DNA of 27,530 nt, from positions 1-27,530 of the IMG/VR virus record IMGVR_UViG_3300034789_000834. The stretch is one strand, 5' to 3'. The translations under genes were made by a program, and so were the position numbers. How positions within the stretch are numbered: position 1 is the first letter of the stretch; every line of letters starts with the position of its first letter. This stretch comes from a virus. The notes below the pieces were generated by a model. The model was not told the origin of the DNA. It saw only the letters and a program-made list of their open reading frames with translations, and did not search any database. Shown here piece by piece: positions 4,718 to 27,530 of this stretch.

Positions 4718-4726
4718 TGTTAATTT

Positions 4727-6861: not shown

Positions 6862-7225
6862 AAAAGAAGAATGGGAAATTTATTGGGACCATTGTAAGCC
6901 AATTATAGAACCTGCTGTAAAATATCAACAATCTTATACTATAGATGATATAGAAGATAAAATAAGACATGGGTTTTTTCATTTATGGCCTGGAAAAAAC
7001 TCTGCCATGATTACTGAATTAGTAAATTTACCGCAAGAAAGAGTATATAACTTGCTTTTTGCAGGTGGTAAATATGACGAAATAGAAGGTATAATAGAAC
7101 AGATAGAGGTTTTTGCCAGAGCTATAGGTTGTTCAAAACTTATGGGTGGTGGAAGACCAGGTTGGCATAGAAAAATAAAACATTTAGGTTTTAAAAGAGA
7201 TTTTATTTTAACAAAAACATTATGA
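6845..7225 (+). CDS. GNAT-like virion protein (T7 gp13-like position)
   Basis: 126 residues. The fold pattern suggests the acetyltransferase (GNAT) superfamily: a mid-region strand H-L-W-P-G, then a helix running through I-E-Q-I-E-V-F-A-R-A-I-G-C, then GGGRPGWHRKIKHLGFKR near the C-terminus. This resembles small phage GNAT-like proteins encoded just before internal virion proteins, the position of T7 gene 13. Acetyl-CoA-binding residues cannot be confirmed, so enzyme activity is doubtful. It overlaps both neighbours (17 and 4 bases). Confidence 0.62.
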   Translation: MEKEIKKEEWEIYWDHCKPIIEPAVKYQQSYTIDDIEDKIRHGFFHLWPGKNSAMITELVNLPQERVYNLLFAGGKYDEIEGIIEQIEVFARAIGCSKLMGGGRPGWHRKIKHLGFKRDFILTKTL

Positions 7226-8121
7226 GTTTTAGCAAAAGCAAAGAAACAGATACCGCAAACGTCCCTACTTATTTAGAGAATTTATATACAGATGCTTCTG
7301 AAATAGGTCAAATAGCCGCAGGAGCAGAAATGCCTGTATATTCTGGTAATAGAGTAGCAGGATTAACTCCGGCAGAAATAGAAGCAGAAGCAGAAGCTAG
7401 AAGACTTTTTGGTACTTCTATGGCTTATGATCCAAGAACTAATTTAATGGAAATGATTGGTTTAGATGCTCCTTCTTACAATCCGGCTTCTTTGTTAGAA
7501 GGAAACATAACTGCCTATGAAAACAGATTTACTAATCCACTTATTAATACTATTGTTGATGATTTTGACAGAGTAAGAGATATGCGTGTTCAAAAAATTC
7601 AAGATGATGCAATCAATAGCGGAGCTTTTGGCGGAAATAGATCTGCTATTTTTGAACAAGAAGGCACTAGGGCCTTAGACGAAGAAATGCTTAAAACAAT
7701 AGCAGGAGTAAGAGAGTCTGCTTTTGATAGAGCTATGGATAGATTAGAAGCAGATACAAATAGAATAGACACTTCTAGAAGAATTGGAGCTGATCTTTAT
7801 GCTCAAAATTTAGATAGAAGATCTGGTTTATTAAATGATTTACTAGCAGATCAATACAACTTGCTTAATTTATCAGATGATTTCGGAACAAGAAGAAGGG
7901 GACTAGACCAACAACTAATAGATGCAGATATAGCTAGATTTGACGAAGAAAGAAATATACCACTAGAAAGATTAGGAATTTTAGCGGCGGCTTCTGGTCA
8001 AATTAGTCCAAGCGTAATCGGTAGAACTAGAACAAGTAGCTCTAAAGGACTAGATATATCAGATATTGGAGCTTTATTAACAGGAATAGGCAACTTAGGT
8101 GGTGGTGGTGGCGGCAACTAA
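7222..8121 (+). CDS. Internal virion / DNA-transfer-type protein
   Basis: 299 residues, mostly helical. The central N-S-G-A-F-G-G-N-R motif, followed by long Arg/Asp/Leu helices (about 110-260), is characteristic of a widespread podovirus family annotated as internal virion or DNA-transfer protein. The C-terminus is a Gly run (GNLGGGGGGN). The ATGA overlap with the previous gene and the taATG overlap with the next indicate coupled translation, with no SD. Probable role: ejected or core protein helping DNA cross the host envelope; inferred from pattern and neighbours. Confidence 0.7.
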   Translation: MSFSKSKETDTANVPTYLENLYTDASEIGQIAAGAEMPVYSGNRVAGLTPAEIEAEAEARRLFGTSMAYDPRTNLMEMIGLDAPSYNPASLLEGNITAYENRFTNPLINTIVDDFDRVRDMRVQKIQDDAINSGAFGGNRSAIFEQEGTRALDEEMLKTIAGVRESAFDRAMDRLEADTNRIDTSRRIGADLYAQNLDRRSGLLNDLLADQYNLLNLSDDFGTRRRGLDQQLIDADIARFDEERNIPLERLGILAAASGQISPSVIGRTRTSSSKGLDISDIGALLTGIGNLGGGGGGN

Positions 8122-9209
8122 TGATAGATCCTAAATTTAAAGATATGCTTACTCTTGCCAATATGGGAGTTACCCCAGATGCTTTGACAGCTTTTCAAAA
8201 TCACAGAGATAAAATCCAACAAGGAGAAGATGCTCTAAAAATGAGAAATAGTGTTTTATTTGGCAACACTTTTGCAAATCCTAGCTCACAAACTAATGCT
8301 ACTTTTATACCGCCACAAGAAGGAAGTATGTATGATCCACAAAATCAAAGAAGACAAGTAGCAACAAAACTAGATATGGCTATGACAAATACTCCTGATC
8401 GGTTTATAAATCCTTTGTTGTCGCCTGATACTTTTGCTAGACCTAGCGGCAGTACATTACTTAATAATGTAAATGCAAACTCAGCTCCAGTAATGTTTCA
8501 AAATTTAAATAAAGAAGCTGTAGCAGACAATCTTGAAAAAACTATAGGAGCTGTTGATAAAAGAGAAAATAAACTTGCTAAAAGAAGGGAAGCATTTGAT
8601 AAAGTAAGAAGGTTTGGCTTAGCTTTACAAGGCAAAGATCCAAATGCTATGGACATGAAAAAAGTTTTACAACAACTACAAATTCAATCAAGTCTTTTAA
8701 ATCAAAAAAACACACAATCAATTATTCAAGCAAGAGAAGATAAAATAAGCCAAGAAAATGACATTATAAATTATGCTATGTCTGAGTTAGCTAATGATCC
8801 AAATGTTACAAACAAAAAAATATATGAAAATAATAGAGGTTTGTTATTAGAGTATGGAAAAACTAAGTTAAAAGAAAAACCTAGTCAAGTATTAGTCGGC
8901 TATATACGAGGTAATATAATGAGTCCTAATAAATTTAAAGAAATATCAAATATAAATGTTATAAAAGATATGGTTGTAAATAATCCAGATATAGCAAATG
9001 TATCAGGCGATAAAGTACAGGAATTTTTTGATTTTGTGAAAGGAATTAGTTATAACGATTATGCAAATAATGTAAATGGAGCTAGAGATTTTATAAATCA
9101 ACTTATAAGATTGCCAAAAGATTTCATAACTGACGGAGAATATACATCTTTAGAAATACAACAAAGATTAAATTCTTTTATGAACCCCCTAAATATGCCT
9201 GTAAACTAA
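8121..9209 (+). CDS. Hypothetical internal virion protein
   Basis: 362 residues, family not recognised. Largely alpha-helical with Gln/Asn/Lys-rich segments, a probable coiled coil around 170-215, and no membrane segment. It sits between the AFGG-motif protein and the giant internal protein, where podoviruses encode core or ejection proteins (such as T7 gp14-gp16 or P22 gp7/gp20/gp16). The start shares one base with the previous stop, and a Gly-coding GGT/GGC run upstream replaces any SD. Confidence 0.68.
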   Translation: MIDPKFKDMLTLANMGVTPDALTAFQNHRDKIQQGEDALKMRNSVLFGNTFANPSSQTNATFIPPQEGSMYDPQNQRRQVATKLDMAMTNTPDRFINPLLSPDTFARPSGSTLLNNVNANSAPVMFQNLNKEAVADNLEKTIGAVDKRENKLAKRREAFDKVRRFGLALQGKDPNAMDMKKVLQQLQIQSSLLNQKNTQSIIQAREDKISQENDIINYAMSELANDPNVTNKKIYENNRGLLLEYGKTKLKEKPSQVLVGYIRGNIMSPNKFKEISNINVIKDMVVNNPDIANVSGDKVQEFFDFVKGISYNDYANNVNGARDFINQLIRLPKDFITDGEYTSLEIQQRLNSFMNPLNMPVN

Positions 9210-9215
9210 TGAATA

Positions 9216-12200
9216 ATGTCTTTATTAGATGATTTCAATGCCGGAAAAGATTTAAGTAAAAATAATTTTTTTGACCTAAACACCGAACAAACAAATTCCG
9301 AAACTACCTTAGAAACTACACCAGAAGAAAGCGTTGGTTTTGGTTCTAATGTTTTTAGAACATTAGTAGGAGCAGGAAGGGATTTAACTCAAGGAACTTT
9401 AGATTTTGCAAAATTTATAACACCTGATGCTTTAGATTATGGATTTATTTATGGAGATAATCCAAACACAGAAGAAGTAGAAAGCGGTTTAAGATTTGGT
9501 TACACAGGAAAAGACTCTGGTGTGCCAAGAGTAACTTTGCCAGAAGTAGAAGAACCTACATATTTTGGCGGTTCTTTTCTTAGAGATGTAACCCAATTTG
9601 CAGTACCTTTTTCTAAATTAAATACAGTAACAGCTCCTTTTAGAACTGTTGCCGGTCCAGGAACTTCAATAGGATCTAATATTGCAAATAGATTTTTAAC
9701 ACCTGGATTTGGAAAAAATACTTTAGATAGGTTTGGCTCTAATGTCGCTAGATATGGAACTTTAGGAGCAGTTACAGAGAATATAGCTTTTAGTCCTTAC
9801 GAACCTAGATTGTCTAATTTAGTACAAGAATATCCTATGTTACAAAATCCTATAACTGAATATTTACAATCAGATCCTAATGACAGCGAAGCAGAAGCAA
9901 GATTAAAAATGACTATAGAAGGGTTTGGATTAGGTATTCCTTTTGAATATATTAGTAGTGCCATAACTACATATTCTAGAAATAAAGCAATCGCAAGAGA
10001 GCAAAGAATAGCAGAAGGAATAGAAAAAAATAAACTTCCAGAAGGAGAAGATTTTGTAGGTCCTGCAAGACCAGAAAAACCTATAGAAACTACAGTAGAA
10101 GAAGTTATAAAAGATCAAAAATTAGATATACCTATTTATAGAGAAGACGGATCTTTAGATATAGATTTAGGAAAAAATAATTCAAAATTAGGAAATTATT
10201 TAAAAAAGGCAGAATTTAATGATGATGATGTTGCTTTTAATAAATTTATAAAACGCAGAGTAAGATCAGAGTCTTATGGTTATGGCAAAAAATTTAAAAA
10301 TCTTTTTGAAAGATACAATAGACTTTTTGGAGAAGGAAATGAAGAAAGAGGATTAGCAAACAGATTTTTAGCAGAAGAAATTTCTAAAATTAAAGTTAAA
10401 GCTGATAAAGATTGGAAAAAATATAAAGCAGGAAAAACACCAGAAAGTCCTTTAAACAACAGACTTCAAGAACCAGATATGCCAGAAGTTTTCCCTACTG
10501 CTAAAGGAGTTTTAAGACAGCTAAGACCTTTTACTTATGCACAATTAAAAGTAAGTGAAATAGGGGACTCTTTAGGACTTAATGATAGTAGAGGAAGGCC
10601 TAGTAGAGCTTATTACAAAAAAAGTAAACCTGATTACGAGTCAGAAACTCAAAAAATTGTAAGAGAAAAAAGAGAACAAGATGAAATTATGGACTCTTCA
10701 TGGTGGGACGGCCTTGCAGAACAATTTGAGCGACAAGGATTTGAGCTTAGTTACGATACCGCATCACAAGTATTAGCTAAAGGAGATGATAGTAATTCAG
10801 CAGAAAATGTATTAAAAAAATTAATAGAAGAAGACGCTTATAGACCAGATGATGCTTATAAGCTACTAGAATACGAAAGATTATTAGAAGGTATAGATCA
10901 AGAAAGACGCTTTTTAGAAGGAGAAGGTTTTGATCCAGATGAATTATTAGACGATCAAATAGACGCAATTCTTCTTAATACTCAAAAAAACTTAGATGAT
11001 AGACTTGATTTAAACCAAGAAATTTTTGAAAACTATACACCACCTAATTTAAGAGGAGATCAGGGATTGCCATTAGGAGAAGGAGCTGATGCTCCGCCTG
11101 GAACTCCACCACCACCTAGATCAGACGAAGGCCCTATACCAGAAGGGCCTATAGATCCAGATAAATTAGCTAATATAAATTTAACTAAATATGATTTAAG
11201 GCCAGAAGATATAGAAGCTCTAACAAGTCAAGCTATAAGAAATAATAATTGGGTTGGAGCTAGAAACAAAATGAAATTTGGTTCTGACGGAAGCATTTTA
11301 AGAGAAGACGCTTTAGCTTCTGGATTAACTATTGATAAATTTATTAATGCTCCTAGAAATTATAAATTTTCTCCGCAAGAAATTATGGCGGCTAGAATGA
11401 TGTTGCAATATTTGGCAAAACAAACTAGCGAATTATCTAGAACATTAAAAGCAAAAGTAGAATTAGGAGTTACGCCAAGCAATCAAGAACTTTACAATTT
11501 TCAATTACTAGAAATGGATTTAGGAGCTGTCGGAGAAAGAATTGTTGGAGAAACCGCATACGCAGGACAATTATTAAATTCTTTCAAATATGCTGTTGAA
11601 AATCTTACCGCAGTCCAAGCAAGAAAATTTGTAGATGATATTGTAGATGCTAGAAAAAATGAAAAGAATGACATTTTAGCAAGGGTTATGAACGCCGCAG
11701 AGTTAGATCCTGATGCTGTAGCTCTTAATGCACAAAGCTCAGTAAGGCCGCCAAGTGTTTTAGACATGACTCAAGAATTTTGGATTAACACTTTGCTTTC
11801 TGGTATTCCAACACAAGTAGTAAATGTAGGTAGTAATGCCATAGTGGCAGGTTTTAGACCTTTAGAAAGTTATCTTGCATCTGTATCAGGATTAGTAGGT
11901 AGGGCATTTGGCTCAAAAAAACCTAGACTGTCTTTTTCAGAGTCTAACGGAAGGGCGTTTGCTACTATTTATGGATTAAGAGATGCTATTAAATCATTTG
12001 GAAAAGCATTTTATGATCCGGAGTCGGTAAAAGATCCAAATACAAAATTAGAATTAGCTAGACAAAAAGCTATTAATACTCCTTTAAAAATTCCAGAGCA
12101 AGTGCCGCTAGTCGGTGGTTTTGATTTAATTGGAGATACAATCAGATTGCCAGGCAGAACTTTATTAGCAGGAGATACATTTTTTAAACAATTATCTTAT

Positions 12201-13586
12201 AACCAAGAAATTTACGGCAGAGCTTTTGATATAGCCGCAAAAAAAGGATTAAGAAATCCTAAAGACTTTATGACAGAAGTAAATAATTTGGTTTTACAAC
12301 ATAGAAACAATCCAACAGGAAAAGTTTTAGGAGATAATTTTGAAGAAATTGCTAGAGAACAAGGTCGTTATCAAACTTTTACTCAAGATTTAGGAGCTTC
12401 CGGTAGGGCATTTCAAAAAATGTTAAATGGAAATATGCAATTAGCAAAATTTATAGTGCCATTTGTAAGAACTCCTGTAAATATTGTTAAATTTTATGGA
12501 GAAAGAGTGCCTGTATTTAATACTTTTAGCAGAAGATTAAGGCAAGATTTTCTTGCCGGTGGTGTTAAAAGGGACGAATTTATAGCTAAATCAACTATAG
12601 GTTTAGGATTAGGTTATCTGGCTTATGAATTAGCTTCGCAAGGAAAAATAATTGGTGGTGGACCTACTGACAGGAGAGAAAGAAGTCAATGGCTACAAGA
12701 TAATGTTCCTTATTCCTTTGTTGGAGCAGACGGAAAAACTTATGAGTTTTTTAGATTTGAACCAGTAGCTATGATTTTTGGTATAAGTGCTGATTTACAA
12801 GGAGTAATGAAAGAAATATCTGAAAATCCAGAATTATATGGAGAAAACGGAGAATTTTTAAATGAAAAATGGGGAGATGCAATATTGCAATTAACATCAG
12901 GTATGCTTTTTTCATTACAAAGAAACTTAACAGATAAAACTTTTTTTAGAGGTATAACTGACTTTGTTAATGCTTTAGAAACAGACAACGCTTCTTCAAT
13001 GGAAGCATACATCAATAATTTTGCGGCTTCTTTTGTACCTACCATGCTTAGAAATATAAATGATTATCAAGATCCTTTTATTAGAGATGCTAGAGATGCT
13101 ATGGATAAAATAAAAGATGATTTGCCTTTCTTTAGTAATAAATATTTACCTAAGAAAAGAAACATTTTTGGAGAGCCAAAATTAAGAAGAAAGCAAGGTA
13201 GCCAAGTTTTTTCTCCAATTACTATTGACAGTACGCCGCCAGATCCTATGTTAGAAGAATTTAATAAAGCAAATTATTATCCTGGACAAATGAAAAGAAA
13301 CATAGACGGCGTAGAGTTAAATGAAAAACAATACGAGTATATGCTTTCAAGATTAGAAAATATAAATGGAAGAACAGCTAGAGAACTTTTTGAAAATTTA
13401 ACTAATAACTTTAATGATAGTATTCCGCCAAGATTTAGGAGAGATGAACTCACTAAACTTATGAGCGATATAAGAACATTTGCTAGAGAAAAAACTTTAA
13501 TAGCACTTACAAGAGATAAGAACAGTCCAATTTACGATCCTGTATGGGCCAAAAAATACGAAGATAAAATAAAAGATTTACAGTAA
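9216..13586 (+). CDS. Giant internal virion (ejection) protein
   Basis: 1456 residues, the largest gene here. The size, the place last among the virion proteins, and the central block near residue 850 (WINTLLSGIPTQVVNVGSNA, preceded by S-V-L-D-M-T-Q-E-F) fit the large internal proteins of marine podoviruses that form the ejection channel. Other features are a charged coiled-coil-rich region (about 250-620), a Pro-rich linker with acidic residues (about 615-650), and moderately hydrophobic helices around 1115-1145. No lytic transglycosylase catalytic motif was seen, unlike T7 gp16. It starts six bases after the previous stop and ends taATG with the nuclease gene. Confidence 0.78.
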   Translation: MSLLDDFNAGKDLSKNNFFDLNTEQTNSETTLETTPEESVGFGSNVFRTLVGAGRDLTQGTLDFAKFITPDALDYGFIYGDNPNTEEVESGLRFGYTGKDSGVPRVTLPEVEEPTYFGGSFLRDVTQFAVPFSKLNTVTAPFRTVAGPGTSIGSNIANRFLTPGFGKNTLDRFGSNVARYGTLGAVTENIAFSPYEPRLSNLVQEYPMLQNPITEYLQSDPNDSEAEARLKMTIEGFGLGIPFEYISSAITTYSRNKAIAREQRIAEGIEKNKLPEGEDFVGPARPEKPIETTVEEVIKDQKLDIPIYREDGSLDIDLGKNNSKLGNYLKKAEFNDDDVAFNKFIKRRVRSESYGYGKKFKNLFERYNRLFGEGNEERGLANRFLAEEISKIKVKADKDWKKYKAGKTPESPLNNRLQEPDMPEVFPTAKGVLRQLRPFTYAQLKVSEIGDSLGLNDSRGRPSRAYYKKSKPDYESETQKIVREKREQDEIMDSSWWDGLAEQFERQGFELSYDTASQVLAKGDDSNSAENVLKKLIEEDAYRPDDAYKLLEYERLLEGIDQERRFLEGEGFDPDELLDDQIDAILLNTQKNLDDRLDLNQEIFENYTPPNLRGDQGLPLGEGADAPPGTPPPPRSDEGPIPEGPIDPDKLANINLTKYDLRPEDIEALTSQAIRNNNWVGARNKMKFGSDGSILREDALASGLTIDKFINAPRNYKFSPQEIMAARMMLQYLAKQTSELSRTLKAKVELGVTPSNQELYNFQLLEMDLGAVGERIVGETAYAGQLLNSFKYAVENLTAVQARKFVDDIVDARKNEKNDILARVMNAAELDPDAVALNAQSSVRPPSVLDMTQEFWINTLLSGIPTQVVNVGSNAIVAGFRPLESYLASVSGLVGRAFGSKKPRLSFSESNGRAFATIYGLRDAIKSFGKAFYDPESVKDPNTKLELARQKAINTPLKIPEQVPLVGGFDLIGDTIRLPGRTLLAGDTFFKQLSYNQEIYGRAFDIAAKKGLRNPKDFMTEVNNLVLQHRNNPTGKVLGDNFEEIAREQGRYQTFTQDLGASGRAFQKMLNGNMQLAKFIVPFVRTPVNIVKFYGERVPVFNTFSRRLRQDFLAGGVKRDEFIAKSTIGLGLGYLAYELASQGKIIGGGPTDRRERSQWLQDNVPYSFVGADGKTYEFFRFEPVAMIFGISADLQGVMKEISENPELYGENGEFLNEKWGDAILQLTSGMLFSLQRNLTDKTFFRGITDFVNALETDNASSMEAYINNFAASFVPTMLRNINDYQDPFIRDARDAMDKIKDDLPFFSNKYLPKKRNIFGEPKLRRKQGSQVFSPITIDSTPPDPMLEEFNKANYYPGQMKRNIDGVELNEKQYEYMLSRLENINGRTARELFENLTNNFNDSIPPRFRRDELTKLMSDIRTFAREKTLIALTRDKNSPIYDPVWAKKYEDKIKDLQ

Positions 13587-15129: not shown

Positions 15130-15966
15130 TTAATCATGGCAAAAACAACTCCTTGTATCATCATCAAATAATTCTATTTGTTTTTCTTCCAAGTTTGTTA
15201 AATTTACCAAGTCTATATAATTTCCGTCTTTTCTAAATGTTGCATTTATTTTTCTCTCTTGTTCAATCCACCATTCAGCTAAATCTGGTTTTTCTTTTAT
15301 AATTTTTGTTAAAGTTTTTCTACCTTTCAAATAACATAAATCACAATTACCGGCTAATGTTTTACCATTATTATTTGTAAGTTTTAAATCAAAGTTATTT
15401 TTTTGCCAAAAATTAAAAACATCTTGTATCGTTACTTTGTTAGTGTATAAAGGACAAACTGAGTCCCAAGAGTTTATATTATTATCATTTTGCCTGTTTT
15501 GTTTTGCTACTCTCATTGGCTCGTCATATCTCAACCCAACTACATTTGTCCATTCTTTATGACCTTTTTGTTTCATAAATCTTTTCATTACATTCATTTT
15601 GAGTTCTTGCGTACACATTCTCATTACTGGATTAGGCAACATATTTCTTCTTTCTATTAATGCAGAAAAAGGTTCTCCATTTCTACTAGCGGTTTCGTAT
15701 GAAACTTCTTTAGTCCTGTATATAGGCCTTTCATTTGATATTTCTAGTTCTAACCAATAAATATAACAGTCCCATTTATCAGCACAATCTTTTACAAAAT
15801 CTAAAGTTTGTGGCATTTCTTTTCCTGTGTTAGCAAAAACCACATAAACATCTTCTGGCAGAGTTCCTTTATGAGCTTCTATAATTTTTTTTAACATATA
15901 TCCAGATGTCCTTCCGCCGCTAAAACTAACAAGAGCAGGTCCTTCTATTTTGTATGCGTCAATCAT
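15130..15966 (-). CDS. PAPS-reductase-like PP-loop enzyme with Cys motifs
   Basis: 278 residues. Adenine-nucleotide alpha-hydrolase (PP-loop) fold: S-F-S-G-G-R-T-S at 14-21, F-A-N-T-G-K-E at 44-50, and V-G-L-R-Y-D-E at 143-149, all typical of PAPS reductase/DndC-like proteins. Cysteines Cys118 (M-C-T-Q), Cys171 (C-P-L-Y), Cys208 and Cys211 (N-C-D-L-C), Cys274 and Cys276 could bind Fe-S or act as redox thiols. Phage members are annotated as PAPS reductase family but their substrate is uncertain: sulfate assimilation, DNA phosphorothioation or RNA thiolation are possible. No DndA/B/D/E partners are visible. Overlaps DUF3310 by 8 bases. Confidence 0.85.
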   Translation of the reverse strand: MIDAYKIEGPALVSFSGGRTSGYMLKKIIEAHKGTLPEDVYVVFANTGKEMPQTLDFVKDCADKWDCYIYWLELEISNERPIYRTKEVSYETASRNGEPFSALIERRNMLPNPVMRMCTQELKMNVMKRFMKQKGHKEWTNVVGLRYDEPMRVAKQNRQNDNNINSWDSVCPLYTNKVTIQDVFNFWQKNNFDLKLTNNNGKTLAGNCDLCYLKGRKTLTKIIKEKPDLAEWWIEQERKINATFRKDGNYIDLVNLTNLEEKQIELFDDDTRSCFCHD

Positions 15967-16183
15967 TTTTTTTATGCACTAATTCTATTTCCATTTCTAA
16001 GTAATGTATTGCTTTATTAAGATCATCAATCCTACTGCCCTTATCTCTACTAATATATTTAACAGCATTACCACAACAATAAGATAGTTTGTTAGCCAAT
16101 ATATACTCTATTGGCTCTATGCCTAGTTTCTTGTAGTGATTACCTGCTACTTGTTTTTTTAGAGTTTTTGGTTTCCTTGACAT
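15959..16183 (-). CDS. DUF3310 protein
   Basis: 74 residues from the ATG at 16183; a longer form from TTG at 16231 is possible but starts deeper inside the upstream gene. The sequence (VAGNHYKKLGIEPIEYILAN, then C-C-G-N-A-V-K-Y-I-S-R and DLNKAIHYLEMEIE) is a clear DUF3310 (phage SaV-like) match, including the H-Y, P-x-E and NAVKYI-R motifs. The function is unknown; the family is very common in phage early or nucleotide-metabolism operons. It is nested out of frame in the upstream 41-residue gene for 44 bases and overlaps the PAPS-like gene by 8. Confidence 0.88.
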   Translation of the reverse strand: MSRKPKTLKKQVAGNHYKKLGIEPIEYILANKLSYCCGNAVKYISRDKGSRIDDLNKAIHYLEMEIELVHKKND

Positions 16184-21717: not shown

Positions 21718-22182
21718 ATGAAACGGAAGGATAAATTTAAAAATTATTGGTGGATAAGCACGGAATATACAAGCATAGATAGTCCTTATATAAACTTAGC
21801 AACGGCATTAAAATTCACGAACTATACTAAACTAAAGGCGGTAATTTGGTCCTGGTTCCGATCTAAACTAGACAGGAAAGATTTAGGTTCAAGGGAAAAG
21901 ATTATTTTATGGATTATTTGTGAAAGGATAAAAGGCGTTTCTTTCTCATGTTGGGATAGTTATATTTATCTGGGTAAAGCTACCGGTATGAATAGGAAGA
22001 CAGTAGCTATTGCGGTTAATAACTTATCTAAGGCAGGATTAATAGTAATAGCTGTTGAAGGAGCTGTTCCGAGAGCTAAAAAGAAACTAGAAGCTCAGAA
22101 AAGATTTAAAAAGCATATTCTCTTGGTTGGCATTGGCTACGCCTTAGACAAGAAGCTAGAAGCGGATAAAGAAAAGGCCTAA
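21718..22182 (+). CDS. Winged-helix DNA-binding protein (replication initiator/regulator-like)
   Basis: 154 residues. Residues 58-112 form a helix-turn-helix unit like HTH_36/phage replication proteins: S-R-E-K-I-I-L-W-I-I, then Y-L-G-K-A-T-G-M-N-R-K-T-V-A-I-A-V-N-N-L with wing K-A-G-L-I-V-I. The Trp-rich N-terminus (N-Y-W-W-I-S) and basic C-terminus may help DNA binding. It has no SD and follows the structured gap, which it may bind as initiator or autorepressor. It is the last gene of the rightward operon, and its stop codon lies within the terminator hairpin. Confidence 0.72.
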   Translation: MKRKDKFKNYWWISTEYTSIDSPYINLATALKFTNYTKLKAVIWSWFRSKLDRKDLGSREKIILWIICERIKGVSFSCWDSYIYLGKATGMNRKTVAIAVNNLSKAGLIVIAVEGAVPRAKKKLEAQKRFKKHILLVGIGYALDKKLEADKEKA

Positions 22183-22198
22183 ATTAATAGGCCTTTTC
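22171..22198. terminator. Bidirectional intrinsic terminator
   Basis: Perfect 11-bp stem GAAAAGGCCTA / TAGGCCTTTTC (22171-22181 / 22188-22198) with loop AATTAA. Since the ends read AAAA and TTTT, either strand gives a GC-stem followed by a U-run. It separates the convergent rightward replication operon (its stop codon lies in the stem) from the leftward 17-gene island. Confidence 0.82.
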
Positions 22199-22199: not shown

Positions 22200-22243
22200 G
22201 ATTAGCTCTTGCTTTTTGGGAAGGGAGAATAATCGAGCTAATC
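22200..22243. repeat. Second inverted repeat beside terminator
   Basis: GATTAGCTC (22200-22208) and GAGCTAATC (22235-22243) form a 9-bp stem with a 26-base loop. The right arm touches the last base of the final leftward gene's stop. It may back up termination or bind a protein. Confidence 0.55.
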
Positions 22244-22362
22244 TAATCTTTACTAAAAAATATTCTGTTTGCGTAGTCTTCTGCTTGTTTTTGGGTAAGT
22301 CCCTTCTCTAATCCTTCTTCGACGAGTCTATCAAGCATAAGCTGATTAATATAATTAGACAT
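22243..22362 (-). CDS. Small hypothetical protein, last of leftward island
   Basis: 39 residues: MSNYINQLMLDRLVEEGLEK, then G-L-T-Q-K-Q-A-E-D-Y-A-N-R-I-F-F-S-K-D. Helical; the segment after G-L resembles a T-x-x-Q-A-x-x-Y helix seen in small adaptor-like phage proteins, but nothing specific is recognised. GGAAGG precedes ATG at 22362 by about six bases. Overlaps the upstream gene by 8 bases and ends at the inverted repeat next to the terminator. Confidence 0.68.
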   Translation of the reverse strand: MSNYINQLMLDRLVEEGLEKGLTQKQAEDYANRIFFSKD

Positions 22363-22675
22363 CTATTACCTTCCCATAATTTTCATTTTGAGTTTGTATA
22401 TCTCTTTCTACTTCTTCCAGATCTTCTACAAACTCAAAAAAAGCAAAGTCTTTGTTTCCTAAAATATAGGTTTTTGCTTTTACGCAGTTATCATAACTTT
22501 CCAGGTAAGCAGTATCTCTTTCTGCTTCTGTATCAAACCATTGTTCTTGCACATCTATGGTTTCAATCATTTTTAGATTACCATTTTCTGCAACTTCAAC
22601 TATGGTTTTGTCTTTGTGATAACCTTTGTCAGTTTCTTTATGGTGGTAAATAGTTTCTTGTATTTTTACTTTCAT
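22355..22675 (-). CDS. Hypothetical early protein
   Basis: 106 residues, not recognised. Begins with alternating charged beta-like sequence (M-K-V-K-I-Q-E-T-I-Y-H-H-K-E), then a very acidic helix near the end (F-E-F-V-E-D-L-E-E-V-E-R-D). A strongly acidic small soluble protein of this kind can mimic DNA in phage inhibitors, but this is speculation. SD AAGGAG six bases before ATG. Confidence 0.75.
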   Translation of the reverse strand: MKVKIQETIYHHKETDKGYHKDKTIVEVAENGNLKMIETIDVQEQWFDTEAERDTAYLESYDNCVKAKTYILGNKDFAFFEFVEDLEEVERDIQTQNENYGKVIDV

Positions 22676-22703
22676 ATAATCTCCTTAAAATTAAATTTTA
22701 TTA

Positions 22704-22880
22704 TTAATCTGGTTTCTTTTCTACTATTTCGTGGGCCAAACCAGACATAAAACCGGCTAACTCATCTTGTGCCATTGTATTCAAACAGGTGGACATAAGT
22801 AAAATGGCTATCTGTTTTTTTCTGTATTCAGGTAAATCATTTAGCCACATGATTAGCCGCAACATATCTTCATCTGTCAT
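22704..22880 (-). CDS. Small hypothetical protein
   Basis: 58 residues: MTDEDMLRLIMWLNDLPEYR, then a helix K-K-Q-I-A-I-L-L-M-S and a second helix ending H-E-I-V-E-K-K-P-D. All-helical, no cysteine pair or membrane segment long enough to call. Strong SD AAGGAG seven bases before the ATG and an 11-base overlap with the upstream gene support a real coding gene although short. Confidence 0.72.
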   Translation of the reverse strand: MTDEDMLRLIMWLNDLPEYRKKQIAILLMSTCLNTMAQDELAGFMSGLAHEIVEKKPD

Positions 22881-23028
22881 TTTTTTTCTCCTTACATCTT
22901 TTTTCGTATAAATGTCTTTTGTGTTTTAAGCGGTTTATCTGGGTAAGCCACATAGTCTGAAATTCTAAGTTTTTAGATCTTCTTAGTGCTTTCTTTAATG
23001 CCGCCATGTTTTTAAAATAATCTTTCAT
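22870..23028 (-). CDS. Small basic helical protein
   Basis: 52 residues, very basic (MKDYFKNMAALKKALRRSKN...HKRHLYEKRCKEKK), isoelectric point clearly high, in contrast to its acidic neighbours. Predicted helices suggest a nucleic-acid or acidic-protein partner. ATGA overlap with the upstream gene; AGGGA lies six bases before the ATG. Not a recognised family. Confidence 0.7.
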   Translation of the reverse strand: MKDYFKNMAALKKALRRSKNLEFQTMWLTQINRLKHKRHLYEKRCKEKKNDR

Positions 23029-23336
23029 AGTATTCCCTGTGATTGAATGAATTTTTCGTATTCTTGTAATGCCTGGAGTGAGATTTCTTTGCGTATGAAA
23101 TCAGGTAAATCTTCTTCAATACAAAAATTATAAGTTTTGTTGGTTCTTAAAAATAAATAGCAATATGGGTAAAGCTCCCTACAAACTATTAAATCAACAC
23201 CATTAGAAAAGTAATAATGAGTATGAATAGCATAGTCGGTAAAATCTTCTACCACCTTATCAACTAATCCGTCTTTTATGTTTCTAACTTTTTTCAGTTC
23301 TTTTTTATATCTTTTTTTATATTCTTCTGGACTCAT
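23025..23336 (-). CDS. Hypothetical early protein
   Basis: 103 residues, not recognised. N-terminal charged helix (S-P-E-E-Y-K-K-R-Y-K-K-E-L-K), a Tyr/His/Cys-rich centre (H-T-H-Y-Y-F, C-R-E-L-Y-P-Y-C-Y), then an acidic C-terminal helix. It uses the GGAGAATAA-NN-ATG start cassette and its stop shares four bases with the next start. Confidence 0.74.
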   Translation of the reverse strand: MSPEEYKKRYKKELKKVRNIKDGLVDKVVEDFTDYAIHTHYYFSNGVDLIVCRELYPYCYLFLRTNKTYNFCIEEDLPDFIRKEISLQALQEYEKFIQSQGIL

Positions 23337-23338
23337 AG

Positions 23339-23710
23339 TTATTCTCCTTCTTCTAGTTTATTTAAAATAGGTATGCCGCAAGAATGACAAAACCAATCTT
23401 CTAAAGATATTCTTGGATTTTTCTTGTGCCATTTATCAATTTTTTCCACAGAACATTCTAATGTTTCTAATGGATTTCCTATCATATTATCCGCTTTATC
23501 TAGTTTGCCGCAGACAATACAGTTTCTATAGTCATAATCTTCCATTTTTATTTTATATGCTTCGTCAAAGTATCTGGTAATAGTTATAGGTACTTCGTAA
23601 AAATCCCCTGTTTTTTTATCTCTCCAGATTTCATCTTCTCCTGCAACGCCTTCTTCAACAAATTCCAGGTCTTCTACATCTATTCCCCAAATTTCTCTTA
23701 CTACGCTCAT
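23339..23710 (-). CDS. Zinc-ribbon hypothetical protein
   Basis: 123 residues. Cys64-x2-Cys67 (C-I-V-C-G) and Cys108-x2-Cys111 (C-H-S-C-G) 40 residues apart make a convincing zinc ribbon; a single Cys86 lies between. The N-terminal half is acidic with Y-E-V-P-I-T-I-T-R-Y beta strands. Possible regulator or protein-binding scaffold; no family recognised. Ends E-E-G-E with the SD of the next gene (GGAGAATAA) embedded in its last codons. SD GGAG five bases before ATG. Confidence 0.75.
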   Translation of the reverse strand: MSVVREIWGIDVEDLEFVEEGVAGEDEIWRDKKTGDFYEVPITITRYFDEAYKIKMEDYDYRNCIVCGKLDKADNMIGNPLETLECSVEKIDKWHKKNPRISLEDWFCHSCGIPILNKLEEGE

Positions 23711-23931
23711 GTTAGCTCCTTTATGGTACTTTTAAAATCGTAAGCCAGATGTTCTATAAATTCCCAAATTTGTTCTCCAGAATAATATTGAAATGGCTCC
23801 CATACATTTTCTACTAAGTGTATGTAAAGGTCTTGTTCTTCCCATTCTTCATATTCTTCTGGTAGATGTTCGGTTAAAAAAGTACCACTTGCGAAAATTA
23901 TCGCTTTTTTGTCTGTTATTTCTTCTATCAT
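23707..23931 (-). CDS. Acidic hypothetical protein
   Basis: 74 residues, strongly acidic and aromatic: E-H-L-P-E-E-Y-E-E-W-E-E-Q-D-L-Y-I-H-L-V-E-N-V-W-E-P-F. A Trp/Tyr/Glu-rich compact protein of this size resembles phage anti-restriction or DNA-mimic proteins in composition only. It uses the GGAGCTAA-C-ATG cassette and ends KELT with ATGA overlap into the zinc-ribbon gene. Confidence 0.74.
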   Translation of the reverse strand: MIEEITDKKAIIFASGTFLTEHLPEEYEEWEEQDLYIHLVENVWEPFQYYSGEQIWEFIEHLAYDFKSTIKELT

Positions 23932-23941
23932 GTTAGCTCCT

Positions 23942-24214
23942 TTATAAAATGCCTTTGTTAATAGCTTCGTTAATAATAAAAGGCATATTATTAGCTATAT
24001 ATTCTTGTTTGGTTTGGTACTTTTTTTTGGAATTAGGGTAAGTCTGTTTGTCGTATTCTTTACAATAATTGATCCAGAGCGTATCTACGAAAGGTTCTAA
24101 TTCTTTTGATGTTATCTTTCTGAGATTGCTCATTCTGTCTATTATCAATGCCGCTACAGTAAAAAAGATTATTCCTGTGCCTATCATGGCTAATGTATCA
24201 AGTGTAAGTGTCAT
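23942..24214 (-). CDS. Membrane-anchored hypothetical protein
   Basis: 90 residues from ATG 24214, chosen because GGAGAATAG-CC precedes it and the upstream stop lies right there; an 8-residue extension would overlap the previous gene. Residues 1-24 form one hydrophobic helix (L-A-M-I-G-T-G-I-I-F-F-T-V-A-A-L-I-I) followed by a basic, cytoplasmic-side segment and a helical tail rich in Lys, Tyr and Asn. Probable inner-membrane protein. Confidence 0.72.
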   Translation of the reverse strand: MTLTLDTLAMIGTGIIFFTVAALIIDRMSNLRKITSKELEPFVDTLWINYCKEYDKQTYPNSKKKYQTKQEYIANNMPFIINEAINKGIL

Positions 24215-24216
24215 GG

Positions 24217-24732
24217 CTATTCTCCTATAACAGAGCAAATGTCGTGGTCTATGTATCTAAGGATTAAGTCAGACTCCCAAGCTCCAATTTCTGCCGCACA
24301 ATATCCATAAACTTCGTCGTATTCTTCTTCAAGCTCGTTCCATTGATAGTCATAACCTTCTTCTTTCATAGCCGCCCTTATGAGTCGTTTTGTAGATTGC
24401 AAGGTATGTTCATCACGAATAATACACATACTGCATATATTAGGGTAAATCTCTACAGCTAATTCATTTCCTTCAAACTCGTTGAAGTAGATACAACCTG
24501 CGTCGTCGCAGTCATTGTCTATATGATATTCAATCTTATAGTCTTCAATGTTTATTGTTTTTAAATCTGGCGTTCCAATTAATCCTTCCAAGATATAGTT
24601 TTTGACTTCGCTTGTGTTTGGTTTGTTTAGCCAGTCATTTTTTACAGATACAATTTCAATATCTGAGTCGCTATAACCTTCTCCGTTGTAAGAGTAGGTA
24701 ATAATAAATTTAGTATGATTTTCTGATTTCAT
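24217..24732 (-). CDS. Hypothetical acidic early protein
   Basis: 171 residues, not recognised. Beta-rich N-half (K-F-I-I-T-Y-S-Y-N-G), then D-C-D-D-A-G-C, then N-I-C-S-M-C-I-I-R-D-E, two Cys pairs that could bind metal, then a very acidic helical C-terminus (W-N-E-L-E-E-E-Y-D-E-V-Y). It is directly downstream of the double-hairpin element, so it may be separately regulated. SD cassette GGAGAATAAAC-ATG; ends I-G-E with the next SD embedded. Confidence 0.75.
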   Translation of the reverse strand: MKSENHTKFIITYSYNGEGYSDSDIEIVSVKNDWLNKPNTSEVKNYILEGLIGTPDLKTINIEDYKIEYHIDNDCDDAGCIYFNEFEGNELAVEIYPNICSMCIIRDEHTLQSTKRLIRAAMKEEGYDYQWNELEEEYDEVYGYCAAEIGAWESDLILRYIDHDICSVIGE

Positions 24733-24752
24733 GTTTATTCTCCTTTAATTGA

Positions 24753-24827
24753 CTAGGACGCTCCTTAACAGTATCAACGAATGGCTAAGCGTACTGTATG
24801 CTTAGTTATCCTTTCAGAGCGTCCTAG
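24753..24827. other. Nested hairpin element (DNA or RNA structure)
   Basis: Perfect 11-bp stem CTAGGACGCTC (24753-24763) / GAGCGTCCTAG (24817-24827) encloses a second hairpin CTAAGC (24785-24790) / GCTTAG (24800-24805). The inner stem extends by a G-T juxtaposition and T-A pairs to a 3-base loop. The G-T pair is a wobble only in a plus-strand RNA; in a minus-strand transcript it would be an A-C mismatch. It fills the largest gap in the leftward island, just before the SD of the 171-residue gene. Confidence 0.65.
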
Positions 24828-24828
24828 C

Positions 24829-24854
24829 ATTATCATAGGGGGGGTTATGATAAT
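24829..24854. repeat. Hairpin with G7/C7 loop
   Basis: ATTATCATA (24829-24837) and TATGATAAT (24846-24854) form a perfect 9-bp stem around a loop of seven G and one T. Its right arm overlaps the stop of the coiled-coil gene, and it abuts the nested hairpin two bases away. The AT stem is weak as a classical terminator. Confidence 0.6.
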
Positions 24855-25279
24855 TCGTTTGTTATTTGGGAAACTATTTCTTCTAACCTATCTCTTACAT
24901 CATTTGGTATAAGTGCCAGAGTAAGTTTTTGTTCTACCTTCTTTCTAATGTCATAGACAGACGGCTCTAAACGTAGAACGCCGTCTTCGTCTGGGTAGTG
25001 TTCTTGAAAATACAAATTAATATCGTCCCTTTTGAGAGTGTATCTTAACTTGCTTACTTCGTTTCTGATTATGTTTTTTATGTCAGAGATTTCTTTATTT
25101 ATTTCTCTTTTCTTTTTGGAAAGTTTTTTTAAAGATTTTTCTAACTCCCTTGCAGACGCAAAAACGTCAGACTTTTGAAAGTCATTAACTTCTTTGTTTC
25201 TGCGTTTGATAATATTAGCTGTAATTTGTTCCGTTATAGCTTCTATTTCAAATTTTCTTAACTCTTTACTTTTAGCCAT
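24845..25279 (-). CDS. Coiled-coil hypothetical protein
   Basis: 144 residues, nearly all Lys/Glu/Ile/Leu-rich helix. Residues about 30-85 (E-K-S-L-K-K-L-S-K-K-K-R-E-I-N-K-E-I) form a strong coiled coil, then a short beta segment (Y-P-D-E-D-G-V-L-R-L), and a C-terminal helix. No family recognised. It uses the GGAGAATAA-CT-ATG cassette; its stop TAA lies within the G7-loop hairpin. Confidence 0.75.
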   Translation of the reverse strand: MAKSKELRKFEIEAITEQITANIIKRRNKEVNDFQKSDVFASARELEKSLKKLSKKKREINKEISDIKNIIRNEVSKLRYTLKRDDINLYFQEHYPDEDGVLRLEPSVYDIRKKVEQKLTLALIPNDVRDRLEEIVSQITNELS

Positions 25280-25281
25280 AG

Positions 25282-25671
25282 TTATTCTCCTTCTATGTTT
25301 TTATGTTTATCGGATATTACAAGATTGCTAAATACAAAGTCGTTTAAAATTCTAAGACTTTTATAAGTGCTTTCTTCTAATTCTTTTGTTGGTATGTCTT
25401 CAATCCAGATTAAACTTTCATCATCTCCAGACGGACAAATATTTTTTCCTTTGTGTGTAAATTCTTCGCAGTAATATTTAGCTTCGTAATATCCTAAGTT
25501 CATAACTAAATCGTCCACCGCATATTCGACCTGCGATTTTTTAATATGCCTAGTAAAATCTAATGTCCCTAAATAATAGCCAACATTAAACTCAGTTGTA
25601 TTTTCGCTGTCTAAAACTTCGTCTATTTCACTTTCGGTTATATGGCTTTTTGCTTCGTCTAAAATATTCAT
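25282..25671 (-). CDS. Hypothetical early protein
   Basis: 129 residues, acidic. N-terminal helix (M-N-I-L-D-E-A-K-S-H-I), then N-V-G-Y-Y-L-G-T-L-D-F, Y-Y-E-A-K-Y-Y-C-E-E-F, C-P-S-G-D-D-E and a helical C-terminus. Two cysteines do not form a motif. Uses GGAGAATAA-TT-ATG, whose bases are also the last codons of a 23-residue ORF, and ends E-G-E with the next SD embedded. Confidence 0.74.
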   Translation of the reverse strand: MNILDEAKSHITESEIDEVLDSENTTEFNVGYYLGTLDFTRHIKKSQVEYAVDDLVMNLGYYEAKYYCEEFTHKGKNICPSGDDESLIWIEDIPTKELEESTYKSLRILNDFVFSNLVISDKHKNIEGE

Positions 25672-25673
25672 AA

Positions 25674-25745
25674 TTATTCTCCGTTGATTATAAATTTGGG
25701 TAAGTCTGTTTCACTTTGAGAATTAAAAAAAAAGATCTGGAGCAT
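25674..25745 (-). CDS. Possible 23-residue peptide (leader or coupling ORF)
   Basis: ATG at 25745, TAA at 25674-25676: M-L-Q-I-F-F-F-N-S-Q, then S-E-T-D-L-P-K-F-I-I-N-G-E. It starts three bases after the previous stop and ends G-E with the same GGAGAATAA cassette as larger neighbours, which is the main support. No own SD; a poly-T run codes FFF. It may be a real micropeptide or a chance ORF carrying the next gene's SD. Confidence 0.4.
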   Translation of the reverse strand: MLQIFFFNSQSETDLPKFIINGE

Positions 25746-25748
25746 AAA

Positions 25749-25943
25749 TTAATTTTCATACTTACTCGCTTTCTTCAATTCTTTTAAATCAACCAACAAA
25801 ATATATTTGGCTTTGCCTTTTTTAATTATTGGTTCATCTAAAAAAATTCTGGCTTGACCTTGATACAAGCCGCAATAAATACCAAAAAGGTCTTTATTGC
25901 GAACCTGTATATAGTCGTTAATTTTAAGGTTTGGTTCTGTCAT
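25749..25943 (-). CDS. Small beta-barrel-like hypothetical protein
   Basis: 64 residues from ATG at 25943, chosen because longer starts lie inside the upstream gene; overlap 20 bases. Sequence M-T-E-P-N-L-K-I-N-D-Y-I-Q-V-R-N, then L-F-G-I-Y-C-G-L-Y-Q-G-Q-A-R-I-F-L, then Y-I-L-L-V-D-L-K-E-L has the strand order of an SH3/KOW-like barrel, by eye. SD is weak (AAGA). Possible nucleic-acid or protein-binding adaptor. Confidence 0.66.
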   Translation of the reverse strand: MTEPNLKINDYIQVRNKDLFGIYCGLYQGQARIFLDEPIIKKGKAKYILLVDLKELKKASKYEN

Positions 25944-26472
25944 GTCTTGATATTCTTTCAAGTTTGTCTTCGTCCACCTTAAACAGTCTTTCATCTGAAG
26001 CAAATTTCCAGGCCAGACCTTGTATGTTTCTATCTAAATAAATTGCCTGTCCTGTGCAACATCTTCCCCAATAAGAACAATTCCAGTAGTCAGTTTCTAG
26101 GATAGGTTCGTTTATTTCTTCTAGTCTGCTTTCGAACCAATCAGAAACTAAATACCATTCGAAAATCTCGTGGTTTGTGTCTTCTTCCATTCTAATTAAG
26201 TCGATACAATCTGCTTCTGTCATGTCCGGATTTTCAGATTTCATTCTTTCAATGTCATCTTCCCATTCAAATAGAATTTCTCCGTCTGTCATTGAGCCGT
26301 TTTTAATATCGTCATAATTAAAAATGCCTTTTGCCAGTAAATCATCAACTAAGTGTGATTGGTTTCTGTCAATGTGATTACGAATAAACATTTCTGTAAT
26401 GTTTTGTTTTTCTCCTTCTGGGAGCAAGTCCCATTCTTCCAAAGATATTCTTTTAGTCATAAATCCTTGCAT
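25924..26472 (-). CDS. Conserved-looking acidic early protein (W-rich YWGR-TGQAI segment)
   Basis: 182 residues. Residues 101-155 (H-E-I-F-E-W-Y-L-V-S-D-W-F, N-E-P-I-L, Y-W-G-R-C-C-T-G-Q-A-I-Y-L-D) resemble a domain I recall in hypothetical phage and plasmid proteins (W-x-V-S-x-W-L, then W-G-R-x-x-x-G-Q-A-I). Function unknown. The N-terminal half is acidic with a short helix-turn pattern (M-T-D-G-E-I...M-T-E-A-D-C-I). SD GGAG seven bases before ATG 26472; a second ATG four codons later is less well placed. Confidence 0.74.
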   Translation of the reverse strand: MQGFMTKRISLEEWDLLPEGEKQNITEMFIRNHIDRNQSHLVDDLLAKGIFNYDDIKNGSMTDGEILFEWEDDIERMKSENPDMTEADCIDLIRMEEDTNHEIFEWYLVSDWFESRLEEINEPILETDYWNCSYWGRCCTGQAIYLDRNIQGLAWKFASDERLFKVDEDKLERISRHDRTKP

Positions 26473-26475
26473 GGC

Positions 26476-26682
26476 TTAGCTCCTTCTTAAAGTCGGTTCA
26501 TTGATAAGGTACTTACATTTATACAAAGAGAAAAAAACATCTTTGTTATAAATGTCTTTTATCTTTTGTCCGTCTTTGTCTTTTATAAAGTACCGCCTTC
26601 CGTTTTTACTGTTTGGAGTTTTTCCGTAGTACTCAATGCAAATAGTAAAACCTTTATAGGTTCGTTCTTCGTAGTCGTGCAT
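26476..26682 (-). CDS. Small basic hypothetical protein
   Basis: 68 residues, basic and Tyr-rich: R-T-Y-K-G-F-T-I-C-I-E-Y-Y-G, then G-R-R-Y-F-I-K-D-K-D-G-Q, compatible with a small beta sheet. Not recognised. GGAGCTAA-T-ATG cassette, ending R-R-S with the next gene's SD (AGGAGCTAA) in the last codons. Confidence 0.7.
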   Translation of the reverse strand: MHDYEERTYKGFTICIEYYGKTPNSKNGRRYFIKDKDGQKIKDIYNKDVFFSLYKCKYLINEPTLRRS

Positions 26683-26683
26683 A

Positions 26684-26863
26684 TTAGCTCCTTTTGATTG
26701 CCCAAAGATTATTAAGTATCAATTCGTCGTTTAGGTCTTGGACATAACTTAAACTAATTGTTCTCCCAATGCGGCAAGAACACTTTTTAAATTGATTATT
26801 GGTAAATACAACGCCGTCCCCATGACAGCATTTTAGATCGTGAGCGTTAATTTCATTATTCAT
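26684..26863 (-). CDS. Small DnaJ-zinc-finger-like protein
   Basis: 59 residues, found by reading the minus strand. The short C-C-H-G-D-G (Cys12, Cys13) and K-C-S-C (Cys28, Cys30) spacing resembles one module of the DnaJ CxxCxGxG zinc finger or a treble-clef knuckle. The rest is helical, ending A-I-K-R-S. Starts ATG 26863 with GGAG five bases upstream. Overlaps the first island gene by four bases (ATGA). Possible small adaptor or inhibitor; unproven. Confidence 0.7.
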   Translation of the reverse strand: MNNEINAHDLKCCHGDGVVFTNNQFKKCSCRIGRTISLSYVQDLNDELILNNLWAIKRS

Positions 26864-27048
26864 ATTAGCTCCCTTTCTGCATAGTCAGATAATATATTTA
26901 CTATATCTATTGACGGCTTCATGGCGTTTTTGATTAGCAATTTTTTAAACTGCTCATCTTCACAACACAAATTAAAATCCGCCGTTGTGGTTGCTTCGAA
27001 TAAACTAGCGATTAAGTCTAGTTTGTCATTTTTGGCTTTAATACCCAT
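26860..27048 (-). CDS. First gene of leftward island, hypothetical
   Basis: 62 residues: basic N-terminus (MGIKAKNDKLDLIASLFEAT), Cys28-Cys29 pair, then helices and acidic end. Not recognised. AGGGAG precedes ATG by about seven bases. As first gene after the divergent control region it is probably the earliest transcribed. Ends RELI with ATGA overlap. Confidence 0.72.
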   Translation of the reverse strand: MGIKAKNDKLDLIASLFEATTTADFNLCCEDEQFKKLLIKNAMKPSIDIVNILSDYAERELI

Positions 27049-27160
27049 ATTTAAACTCCCTTATAAGTTATTAATATAGAGATGATACAGGACAAAGACA
27101 GACATAACAAGCCAAACAAAGACACAAAAGAGAAAAAAAACATTTAAAATAAACGGACAA
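27049..27160. promoter_or_regulatory. Divergent control region, leftward island / terminase
   Basis: 112 bp. AT-rich near the leftward gene (TTATAA, TTAATATAGAG), with candidate leftward -35 TTGTCC (27095-27090) and TAATAA about 16 bases on. The 56 bases from 27087 to 27142 on plus contain only one T, giving an unstructured A/C-rich leader for terminase. Direct repeat ACAAAGACA at 27092 and 27116, and GGACAA at 27090, 27155 and 27163. No SD before terminase. Confidence 0.5.
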
Positions 27161-27530
27161 ATGGACAATAAAGTTAATAAAGGCGGCAGAAAAGCAATAA
27201 AACTGGACGAAAGAGAAATTGAGCGTCTGAGCGGACTGGGACTCAATGAAAAGCAAATTGCAGATAACTTGGGCGTTTCATGGCGTACTTTTCATAGAAA
27301 GAAAAACCAAAAGTCAGTTTTGGCAGCTATATCAAGGGGACGAAGCAAGGCGTTAAAAAATGTTAGCAATAGTCTGTACGAACAAGCAACGAAGCCAGAA
27401 CCAAACATTCACGCTATTAAATTCTTTCTTTCAAATCGTGGGGAGCATGGACAATGGGCGGAAAGGGACTTATCTCTAAATGTAGATTTAAACTTGAACA
27501 ACATTTTAAAAGAAGCCAGACAAAGATTAG
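27161..27530 (+). CDS. terS: Terminase small subunit (partial, runs off window)
   Basis: First 123 residues; no stop before the edge. N-terminal K-G-G-R-K-A-I-K-L-D-E-R-E-I-E-R-L, then HTH at about 29-48 (L-N-E-K-Q-I-A-D-N-L-G-V-S-W-R-T-F-H-R), then R-G-R-S-K-A-L and the I-K-F-F-L-S-N-R-G...W motif near 86-99 are typical of small terminases of the phBC6A51 HTH type. It recognises phage DNA for packaging and delivers it to the large subunit, expected just to the right. No SD and an A/C-rich leader. Possible repeats in the leader could be its binding site. Confidence 0.8.
   Translation, partial: MDNKVNKGGRKAIKLDEREIERLSGLGLNEKQIADNLGVSWRTFHRKKNQKSVLAAISRGRSKALKNVSNSLYEQATKPEPNIHAIKFFLSNRGEHGQWAERDLSLNVDLNLNNILKEARQRL

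What the first reader, a model, noticed from the sequence alone, without database searches (positions are those of the whole stretch)
22243..27048. 17-gene leftward island of small, nearly unrecognisable proteins
Seen: 17 tightly packed minus-strand ORFs of 23-182 residues (median about 70), many strongly acidic and aromatic, two zinc-binding candidates, one membrane protein, one basic helix. None resembles a standard phage enzyme. Known: early phage genes that disable host RNA polymerase, restriction or abortive systems look like this. Inferred: an early takeover/anti-defence island, the likeliest place for an undescribed system.
Basis: partly seen in the sequence, partly recalled or inferred. 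Interest (0 to 1): 0.68.

Follow-up and report, generated by a model that had tools for sequence, protein, structure and literature searches.

The report
Hypervariable phage anti-restriction gene cassette
A marine virus of bacteria carries, between its DNA-copying and DNA-packaging genes, a backwards-facing block of 16 tiny real genes with almost no known relatives; in sister viruses the same slot holds ever-changing small genes, including known ones that protect viral DNA from bacterial restriction enzymes, so it is probably a swappable counter-defence slot.

Summary
Observation: confirmed, with small corrections. Sixteen supported minus-strand genes (39-182 aa, median 85) cover 95% of 22243-27048; the 23-aa ORF is spurious. 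Nearly all genes show purifying selection against a sister phage. Interpretation: partly supported. Shown: (1) the block sits between a RepO-like gene and the small terminase gene, and in 37 loci with both flanks visible this gap always holds a packed, mostly leftward cassette (0.9-5.8 kb, 4-16 small genes). (2) Turnover is extreme: 142 families in 30 distinct islands, mean pairwise overlap 6%, no saturation. (3) Recognisable genes in the slot are mostly anti-restriction or DNA modification: ArdA (4 contigs), ArdC (3 contigs), four kinds of DNA methyltransferase. These are concentrated in the slot; none was found in the terminase/structural region (540 kb). Not shown: none of the window's own 16 proteins matches a known anti-defence protein, and both structure models are too poor to use. 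Early expression rests only on a leftward sigma-70-like promoter and strong Shine-Dalgarno sites. Best reading: an accessory counter-restriction cassette, a new variant of the known phage/plasmid anti-defence hotspot, in a phage lineage with no close match in the phage collection searched.

The parts
22172..22197 (.). perfect inverted repeat AAAAGGCCTA-AATTAA-TAGGCCTTTT overlapping the RepO stop: likely two-way terminator between the convergent replication operon and island
   Evidence: 11-bp stem, -16.5 kcal/mol; identical in L003, L004, L010
22201..22240 (-). conserved stem in the 3' untranslated region of the island transcript (GATTAGCTC...GAGCTAATC)
   Evidence: loop carries a CUCCCUU stretch complementary to the island's SD-like sequences; meaning unknown
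22243..22362 (-). 39-aa gene, most widely shared family of the window's island (8 loci)
   Evidence: dN/dS 0.07 v L010
22355..22675 (-). 106-aa acidic gene, missing cleanly in L003/L005/L013
   Evidence: no relative among phages
22704..22880 (-). 58-aa helical gene, identical protein in L010 and L003
   Evidence: dN 0 with dS 0.20
22870..23028 (-). 52-aa basic gene (pI 10.5)
   Evidence: family in 6 loci
23025..23336 (-). 103-aa gene; related second copies 7380-7634 in L004 and 13177-13431 in L008
23339..23710 (-). 123-aa gene with CxxC...CxxC zinc candidate; fusion of two genes that are separate in L010 and L003 (a third gene lies between them in L003)
23707..23931 (-). 74-aa very acidic gene (net -14)
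23942..24214 (-). 90-aa gene with N-terminal membrane helix (by eye)
   Evidence: 100% identity to L010
24217..24732 (-). 171-aa acidic gene (net -24)
   Evidence: no phage relative; not ArdA by profile; model pLDDT 38
24845..25279 (-). 144-aa coiled gene, cleanly absent from L010/L002, present in L034/L110/L111
25282..25671 (-). 129-aa acidic gene
   Evidence: no phage relative
25749..25991 (-). 80-aa gene
   Evidence: relatives in L004, L010, L011
25924..26472 (-). 182-aa acidic gene, PHROG 26364 (unknown function); distant relatives in Vibrio, Pseudoalteromonas and Rhizobium phages; in L004/L011 C-terminal half of a 230-aa zinc protein
   Evidence: model pLDDT 42
26476..26682 (-). 68-aa gene, PHROG 36231 (unknown function, weak)
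26684..26863 (-). 59-aa gene, CC..GDG...CSC zinc-ribbon candidate
26860..27048 (-). 62-aa first gene of the leftward transcript
   Evidence: dS 1.05, dN 0.14
27082..27110 (-). sigma-70-like leftward promoter TTGTTA-17-TATCAT, 33 nt before the first ATG
   Evidence: p 0.05 against shuffles
21718..22182 (+). left anchor: RepO-like replication initiation gene
   Evidence: phrog_270 1.7e-8
27162..27530 (+). right anchor: small terminase subunit (cut by the window end)
   Evidence: phrog_309 4.5e-18

Best explanation
The island is a swappable accessory cassette at a fixed slot of a P22-portal-type marine phage lineage. It is read leftward from its own host-type promoter next to the small terminase gene and stopped by a two-way terminator at the replication operon. 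Its job is most likely to protect incoming phage DNA and the infection from host restriction and related defences: small, well-translated proteins that bind or mimic, and in sister phages ArdA, ArdC or DNA methyltransferases. Shown: real genes, fixed slot, extreme turnover, known anti-restriction genes in the same slot of relatives. Inferred: early expression, and that the window's own unknown proteins serve the same purpose. More speculative: the slot abuts the packaging start, so by the last-in-first-out rule of lambda-type packaging (general knowledge, not tested here) it may be among the first DNA to enter the cell.
For: Fixed slot and turnover: 37 of 37 loci with both flanks visible, 142 families in 30 distinct islands, Jaccard 0.06, rarefaction not flattening. 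Clean single-gene gains and losses and a gene fusion between phages about 93% identical. Known function in the slot: ArdC in L039/L040/L154, ArdA in L038/L079/L133/L135, DNA methyltransferases of four kinds (phrog_757, MT-A70, ParB-N6/N4, Dam). Such hits: 14 of 21 in the slot, which is 15% of the bases held; 0 of 21 from TerL onward, 65% of the bases (p about 1e-7, or 2e-5 after collapsing near-identical loci). The same layout recurs in named distant phages DSL-LC05 and ctNMl277, the latter with a cytosine methyltransferase. Promoter: leftward sigma-70 match at p<=0.1 in 17 of 43 gaps, rightward 3 of 43, 4.3 expected. SD: 13 of 16 v 3 of 12.
Against: No protein of the window's own island matches any known anti-defence family, nor ArdA by profile. 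Functional genes are known in only a minority of islands, and some methyltransferases lie just outside the slot or are read rightward. Expression timing is untested. The phage has an integrase, so the cassette could instead be read in the prophage.
Confidence: 0.6

Rival explanations
1. A moron-type prophage cassette: read from its own promoter in the lysogen and serving the host or the prophage (superinfection exclusion, defence against other phages), like the hotspot of P2/P4.
For: Opposite orientation to both flanking lytic operons, own promoter and terminator, tyrosine integrase in the same genome, 1-5 kb with high turnover between two conserved genes as described for P2/P4 hotspots (PMC9122126). 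The leftward cluster of the distant phage DSL-LC05 is annotated with a repressor.
Against: No credible PADLOC defence match in the nine island proteins tested (only weak coiled-coil matches for the 144-aa protein). Recognisable genes in sister islands protect incoming DNA rather than attack other phages. No repressor gene was recognised in the window or the marine islands, so stable lysogeny is unproven.
Confidence: 0.2
2. A general early host-takeover region (inhibitors of host polymerase, nucleases, metabolism) with anti-restriction genes as only one part.
For: Many unrelated small families, aromatic-rich, host-type promoter and strong SD, as in the T7 0.3-0.7 region (established knowledge).
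Against: No family with a known takeover function was found among the scanned families; the functions that are known are DNA protection.
Confidence: 0.17
3. Spurious or decaying ORFs, or passenger genes without a shared purpose.
For: Most families have no known relatives, and many are found in one island only (61 of 142).
Against: Purifying selection, packing, SD sites and conservation across sister phages; anti-restriction concentration.
Confidence: 0.03

Closest known systems
Anti-defence islands in the leading region of conjugative plasmids (PMC11541004)
   Same: Clustered ArdA-type genes, orphan DNA methyltransferases and many unknown small genes between fixed boundaries; placement thought to favour early expression
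   Different: Phage, double-stranded DNA entry; host-type promoter, Frpo sites not looked for; the window's own island has no recognised anti-defence gene
P2/P4 phage hotspots of antiviral systems (PMC9122126)
   Same: 1-5 kb, high turnover between two conserved phage genes, next to the packaging region
   Different: Those carry known anti-phage systems; here ArdA, ArdC and methyltransferases in relatives and no PADLOC system in the window's island
Phage accessory genes from highly variable regions screened in E. coli (PMC12373910)
   Same: Small proteins of variable loci, several shown to counter host immunity
   Different: Different phages and host; families here are untested
T7 early region with Ocr (gene 0.3)
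   Same: Host-polymerase promoter, small acidic proteins, anti-restriction role
   Different: Slot lies between replication and terminase genes; no Ocr relative found
ArdA and ArdC proteins
   Same: Present in the same slot of sister phages
   Different: None of the window's proteins belongs to either family

Membership tests
Phage/plasmid anti-defence island | cluster at a fixed place with defined boundaries | tested here: met
   RepO and TerS flank it in 37 of 37 loci
Phage/plasmid anti-defence island | known anti-defence genes concentrated at the locus across relatives | tested here: met
   ArdA, ArdC, methyltransferases; 14 of 21 hits in 15% of bases
Phage/plasmid anti-defence island | known anti-defence gene in this very copy | tested here: not met
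   no credible match in Pfam, PADLOC, PHROGs or PDB sequences
Phage/plasmid anti-defence island | early expression on entry | tested here: inconclusive
   sigma-70-like leftward promoter and strong SD only
Phage/plasmid anti-defence island | genes counter a host defence | not testable with these tools
   needs expression assays
P2/P4-type hotspot | small high-turnover locus between two conserved phage genes | tested here: met
   0.9-5.8 kb, Jaccard 0.06
P2/P4-type hotspot | carries anti-phage defence systems | tested here: not met
   no PADLOC system among nine of the window's island proteins; sister islands not scanned with PADLOC
ArdA / ArdC | a window protein matches the family profile or fold | tested here: not met
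   fold comparison not possible, models poor
T7-type early region | at the first-entering genome end, read by host polymerase, encodes Ocr-like mimic | tested here: inconclusive
   promoter suggests host polymerase; genome end not determined; no Ocr match

The most novel reading that the evidence does not exclude
The slot is an entry-first counter-defence cassette of a common marine phage lineage known only from metagenomes here, and most of its roughly 185 small protein families, including the window's 16, are undescribed inhibitors of bacterial defences, findable simply by their anchor genes.
Probability: 0.35. Interest if true: 0.75.

Novelty: new variant of a known kind. Interest (0 to 1): 0.52.

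Why it matters
It turns a list of orphan ORFs into an anchored locus: any phage with this RepO/TerS pair has its counter-defence candidates between them. Over 480 relatives of its terminase exist in IMG/VR, and the slot already yields ArdA, ArdC and several methyltransferases next to about 180 families, most without a name. It also suggests that restriction-type defences press on phages whose hosts, judged by AT-rich genomes and one Pelagibacter-labelled bin, may be streamlined marine bacteria; the host is not established.

Tried and rejected
Megablast of the island region against phage records: no match. tblastn of the 171-, 129-, 106- and 123-aa proteins against phages: no match; 182-aa in plasmids: none. 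Pfam, PADLOC and PDB searches of the island proteins: nothing credible. Profile comparison of the 171- and 182-aa proteins with ArdA: no similarity. AlphaFold2 models of the 182- and 171-aa proteins: mean pLDDT 42 and 38, too poor for a fold search, so none was run. A repeated start-box GGAGCTAAYATG looked like a cassette linker but is only weakly above chance (7 v 2.7 expected) and is better read as a strong SD site. Neighbourhoods of the distant relatives of the 182-aa protein in Vibrio and Rhizobium phages hold mostly unnamed small genes. Host search in genome contigs gave one phage contig in a Pelagibacter bin, not proof of host. Pile-up of contig ends near the island edges was considered as a sign of a genome end, but strain variation breaking the assembly explains it as well.

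Full report
What the window is. It is a 27.5-kb IMG/VR record, about 33% G+C. Rightward virion genes (tail fibre, internal virion proteins) are followed by a leftward tyrosine integrase and then rightward excisionase-like, exonuclease, Sak4-type annealing, SSB-like, primase-helicase and RepO-like genes. The island comes next, and the window ends inside the small terminase gene. A sister contig of 37 kb continues with terminase large subunit, portal and scaffold; a distant relative's portal is annotated as P22-like. The nearest named phages share under 50% identity in TerL.

Sixteen minus-strand genes of 39-182 aa fill 95% of 22243-27048. ATG ORFs of at least 50 aa cover 90% of the strand against a mean of 4% in shuffles, and the plus strand has none. 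Compared with the sister phage L010 the genes show low dN/dS; two proteins are 100% identical while silent sites change. The exception is the 123-aa gene, whose halves evolve fast. Strong Shine-Dalgarno sites precede 13 of 16 genes against 3 of 12 late genes. The 123-aa gene is a fusion of two genes that are separate in L010 and L003.

The slot is fixed, its contents are not. Sister phages about 93% identical gain or lose whole genes cleanly (22355-22675 absent in L003, L005, L013; 24845-25279 absent in L010). L004 and L011 keep both flanks and the leftmost genes but replace most of the rest. A scan with TerL found 483 relatives, of which the best 80 were kept. In all 37 loci where RepO and TerS are both visible (window and close sisters included), the gap holds a packed, mostly leftward cassette of 4-16 small genes over 0.9-5.8 kb. 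Their roughly 345 minus-strand genes fall into 142 families, 61 of them single; 30 distinct islands share on average 6% of families and the rarefaction curve does not level off. Adding loci with only the TerS side raises the count to 185 families. The gene caller was home-made, the loci are not independent samples, and family counts are therefore approximate.

What the slot does in relatives. Scanned against Pfam, NCBIfam and PHROGs, nearly all confident functional matches are DNA protection or modification: ArdC (PF08401 plus PF18818; full-length match to solved ArdC 6i89, 3.6e-38, with its HELTH metal site kept), ArdA (PF07275, 4.5e-29; a second copy matches Tn916 ArdA 2w82 at 1.9e-8), MT-A70, ParB-N6/N4 methyltransferase, Dam-type and phrog_757 methyltransferases. 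The rest are DUFs or weak matches to small zinc or AAA-type domains. ArdA lies in the same divergent position beside TerS in four contigs and ArdC in three. Of 21 such hits in the TerL loci, 14 lie in the slot (15% of bases) and none from TerL onward (65% of bases). The probe set was chosen from genes seen in or near the slot, so this measures concentration rather than an unbiased census. Named distant phages DSL-LC05 and ctNMl277 show the same layout, the latter with a cytosine methyltransferase.

Control signals. The leftward side of the TerS gap carries a sigma-70-like promoter (window: TTGTTA-17-TATCAT, 33 nt before the first ATG) more often than shuffles predict (17 of 43 gaps at p<=0.1), while the rightward side does not (3 of 43). 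At the other end a perfect 11-bp hairpin flanked by A and T runs overlaps the RepO stop and is conserved, fitting a two-way terminator. This supports transcription by unmodified host polymerase as a separate unit. It does not say when.

What remains unknown. None of the window's own proteins has a credible match in Pfam, PADLOC or PDB sequences, and PHROG matches are to families of unknown function. The 182-aa protein has distant relatives only in mostly unnamed neighbourhoods of Vibrio and Rhizobium phages. Structure models were too poor to search. So the step from 'this slot holds anti-restriction genes in relatives' to 'these 16 genes are anti-defence' is inference.

Comparison with the known. 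Plasmid leading regions are described as anti-defence islands with ArdA and orphan methyltransferases (PMC11541004); ArdC was shown to overcome restriction in conjugation (PMC7213743, abstract). P2/P4 hotspots are 1-5 kb high-turnover loci between conserved genes (PMC9122126). Variable-region phage genes were shown to counter immunity in E. coli (PMC12373910). The island works most like these. It is not a member of the ArdA, ArdC or T7 early-region kinds by any test made here. I rate it a new variant of a known kind.

Noticed in passing
15130-15966 (-): PAPS-reductase-like gene (PADLOC SspD 3e-14, DndC 2e-7) sits beside the integrase; the relatives that cover this junction lack it, their alignments jumping from about 15130 to 15968: a clean recent insertion, possibly a DNA phosphorothioation-type or moron gene. 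Some relatives carry about 90 bp of other DNA there.
   Followed up: partly
22201-22240 (-): Conserved stem in the 3' untranslated end of the island transcript whose loop is complementary to the SD-like AAGGGAGAATAAT resembling sites before many island genes; could be a regulatory RNA element or chance.
   Followed up: no
40-13586 (+) versus 22243-27048 (-): Late virion genes mostly lack Shine-Dalgarno sites while island genes have near-perfect ones (3 of 12 v 13 of 16).
   Followed up: partly
27100-27161 (+): The TerS gene is preceded by a TTAAAATAA/TATAAAATAAG-like box without a recognisable -35 in many sister phages: perhaps a promoter needing a phage factor.
   Followed up: no
L051 2821-4056, L069 2072-3286, L083 1009-2238, L096 2087-3259: Rightward ParB-N plus N6/N4 methyltransferase gene directly before TerS, the largest rightward gene seen inside the slot.
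   Followed up: partly
both island edges (about 22100 and 27200): Many contigs of sister phages end near the RepO or TerS edge of the island, as expected if strain variation breaks assembly there; a packaging end is not excluded.
   Followed up: no
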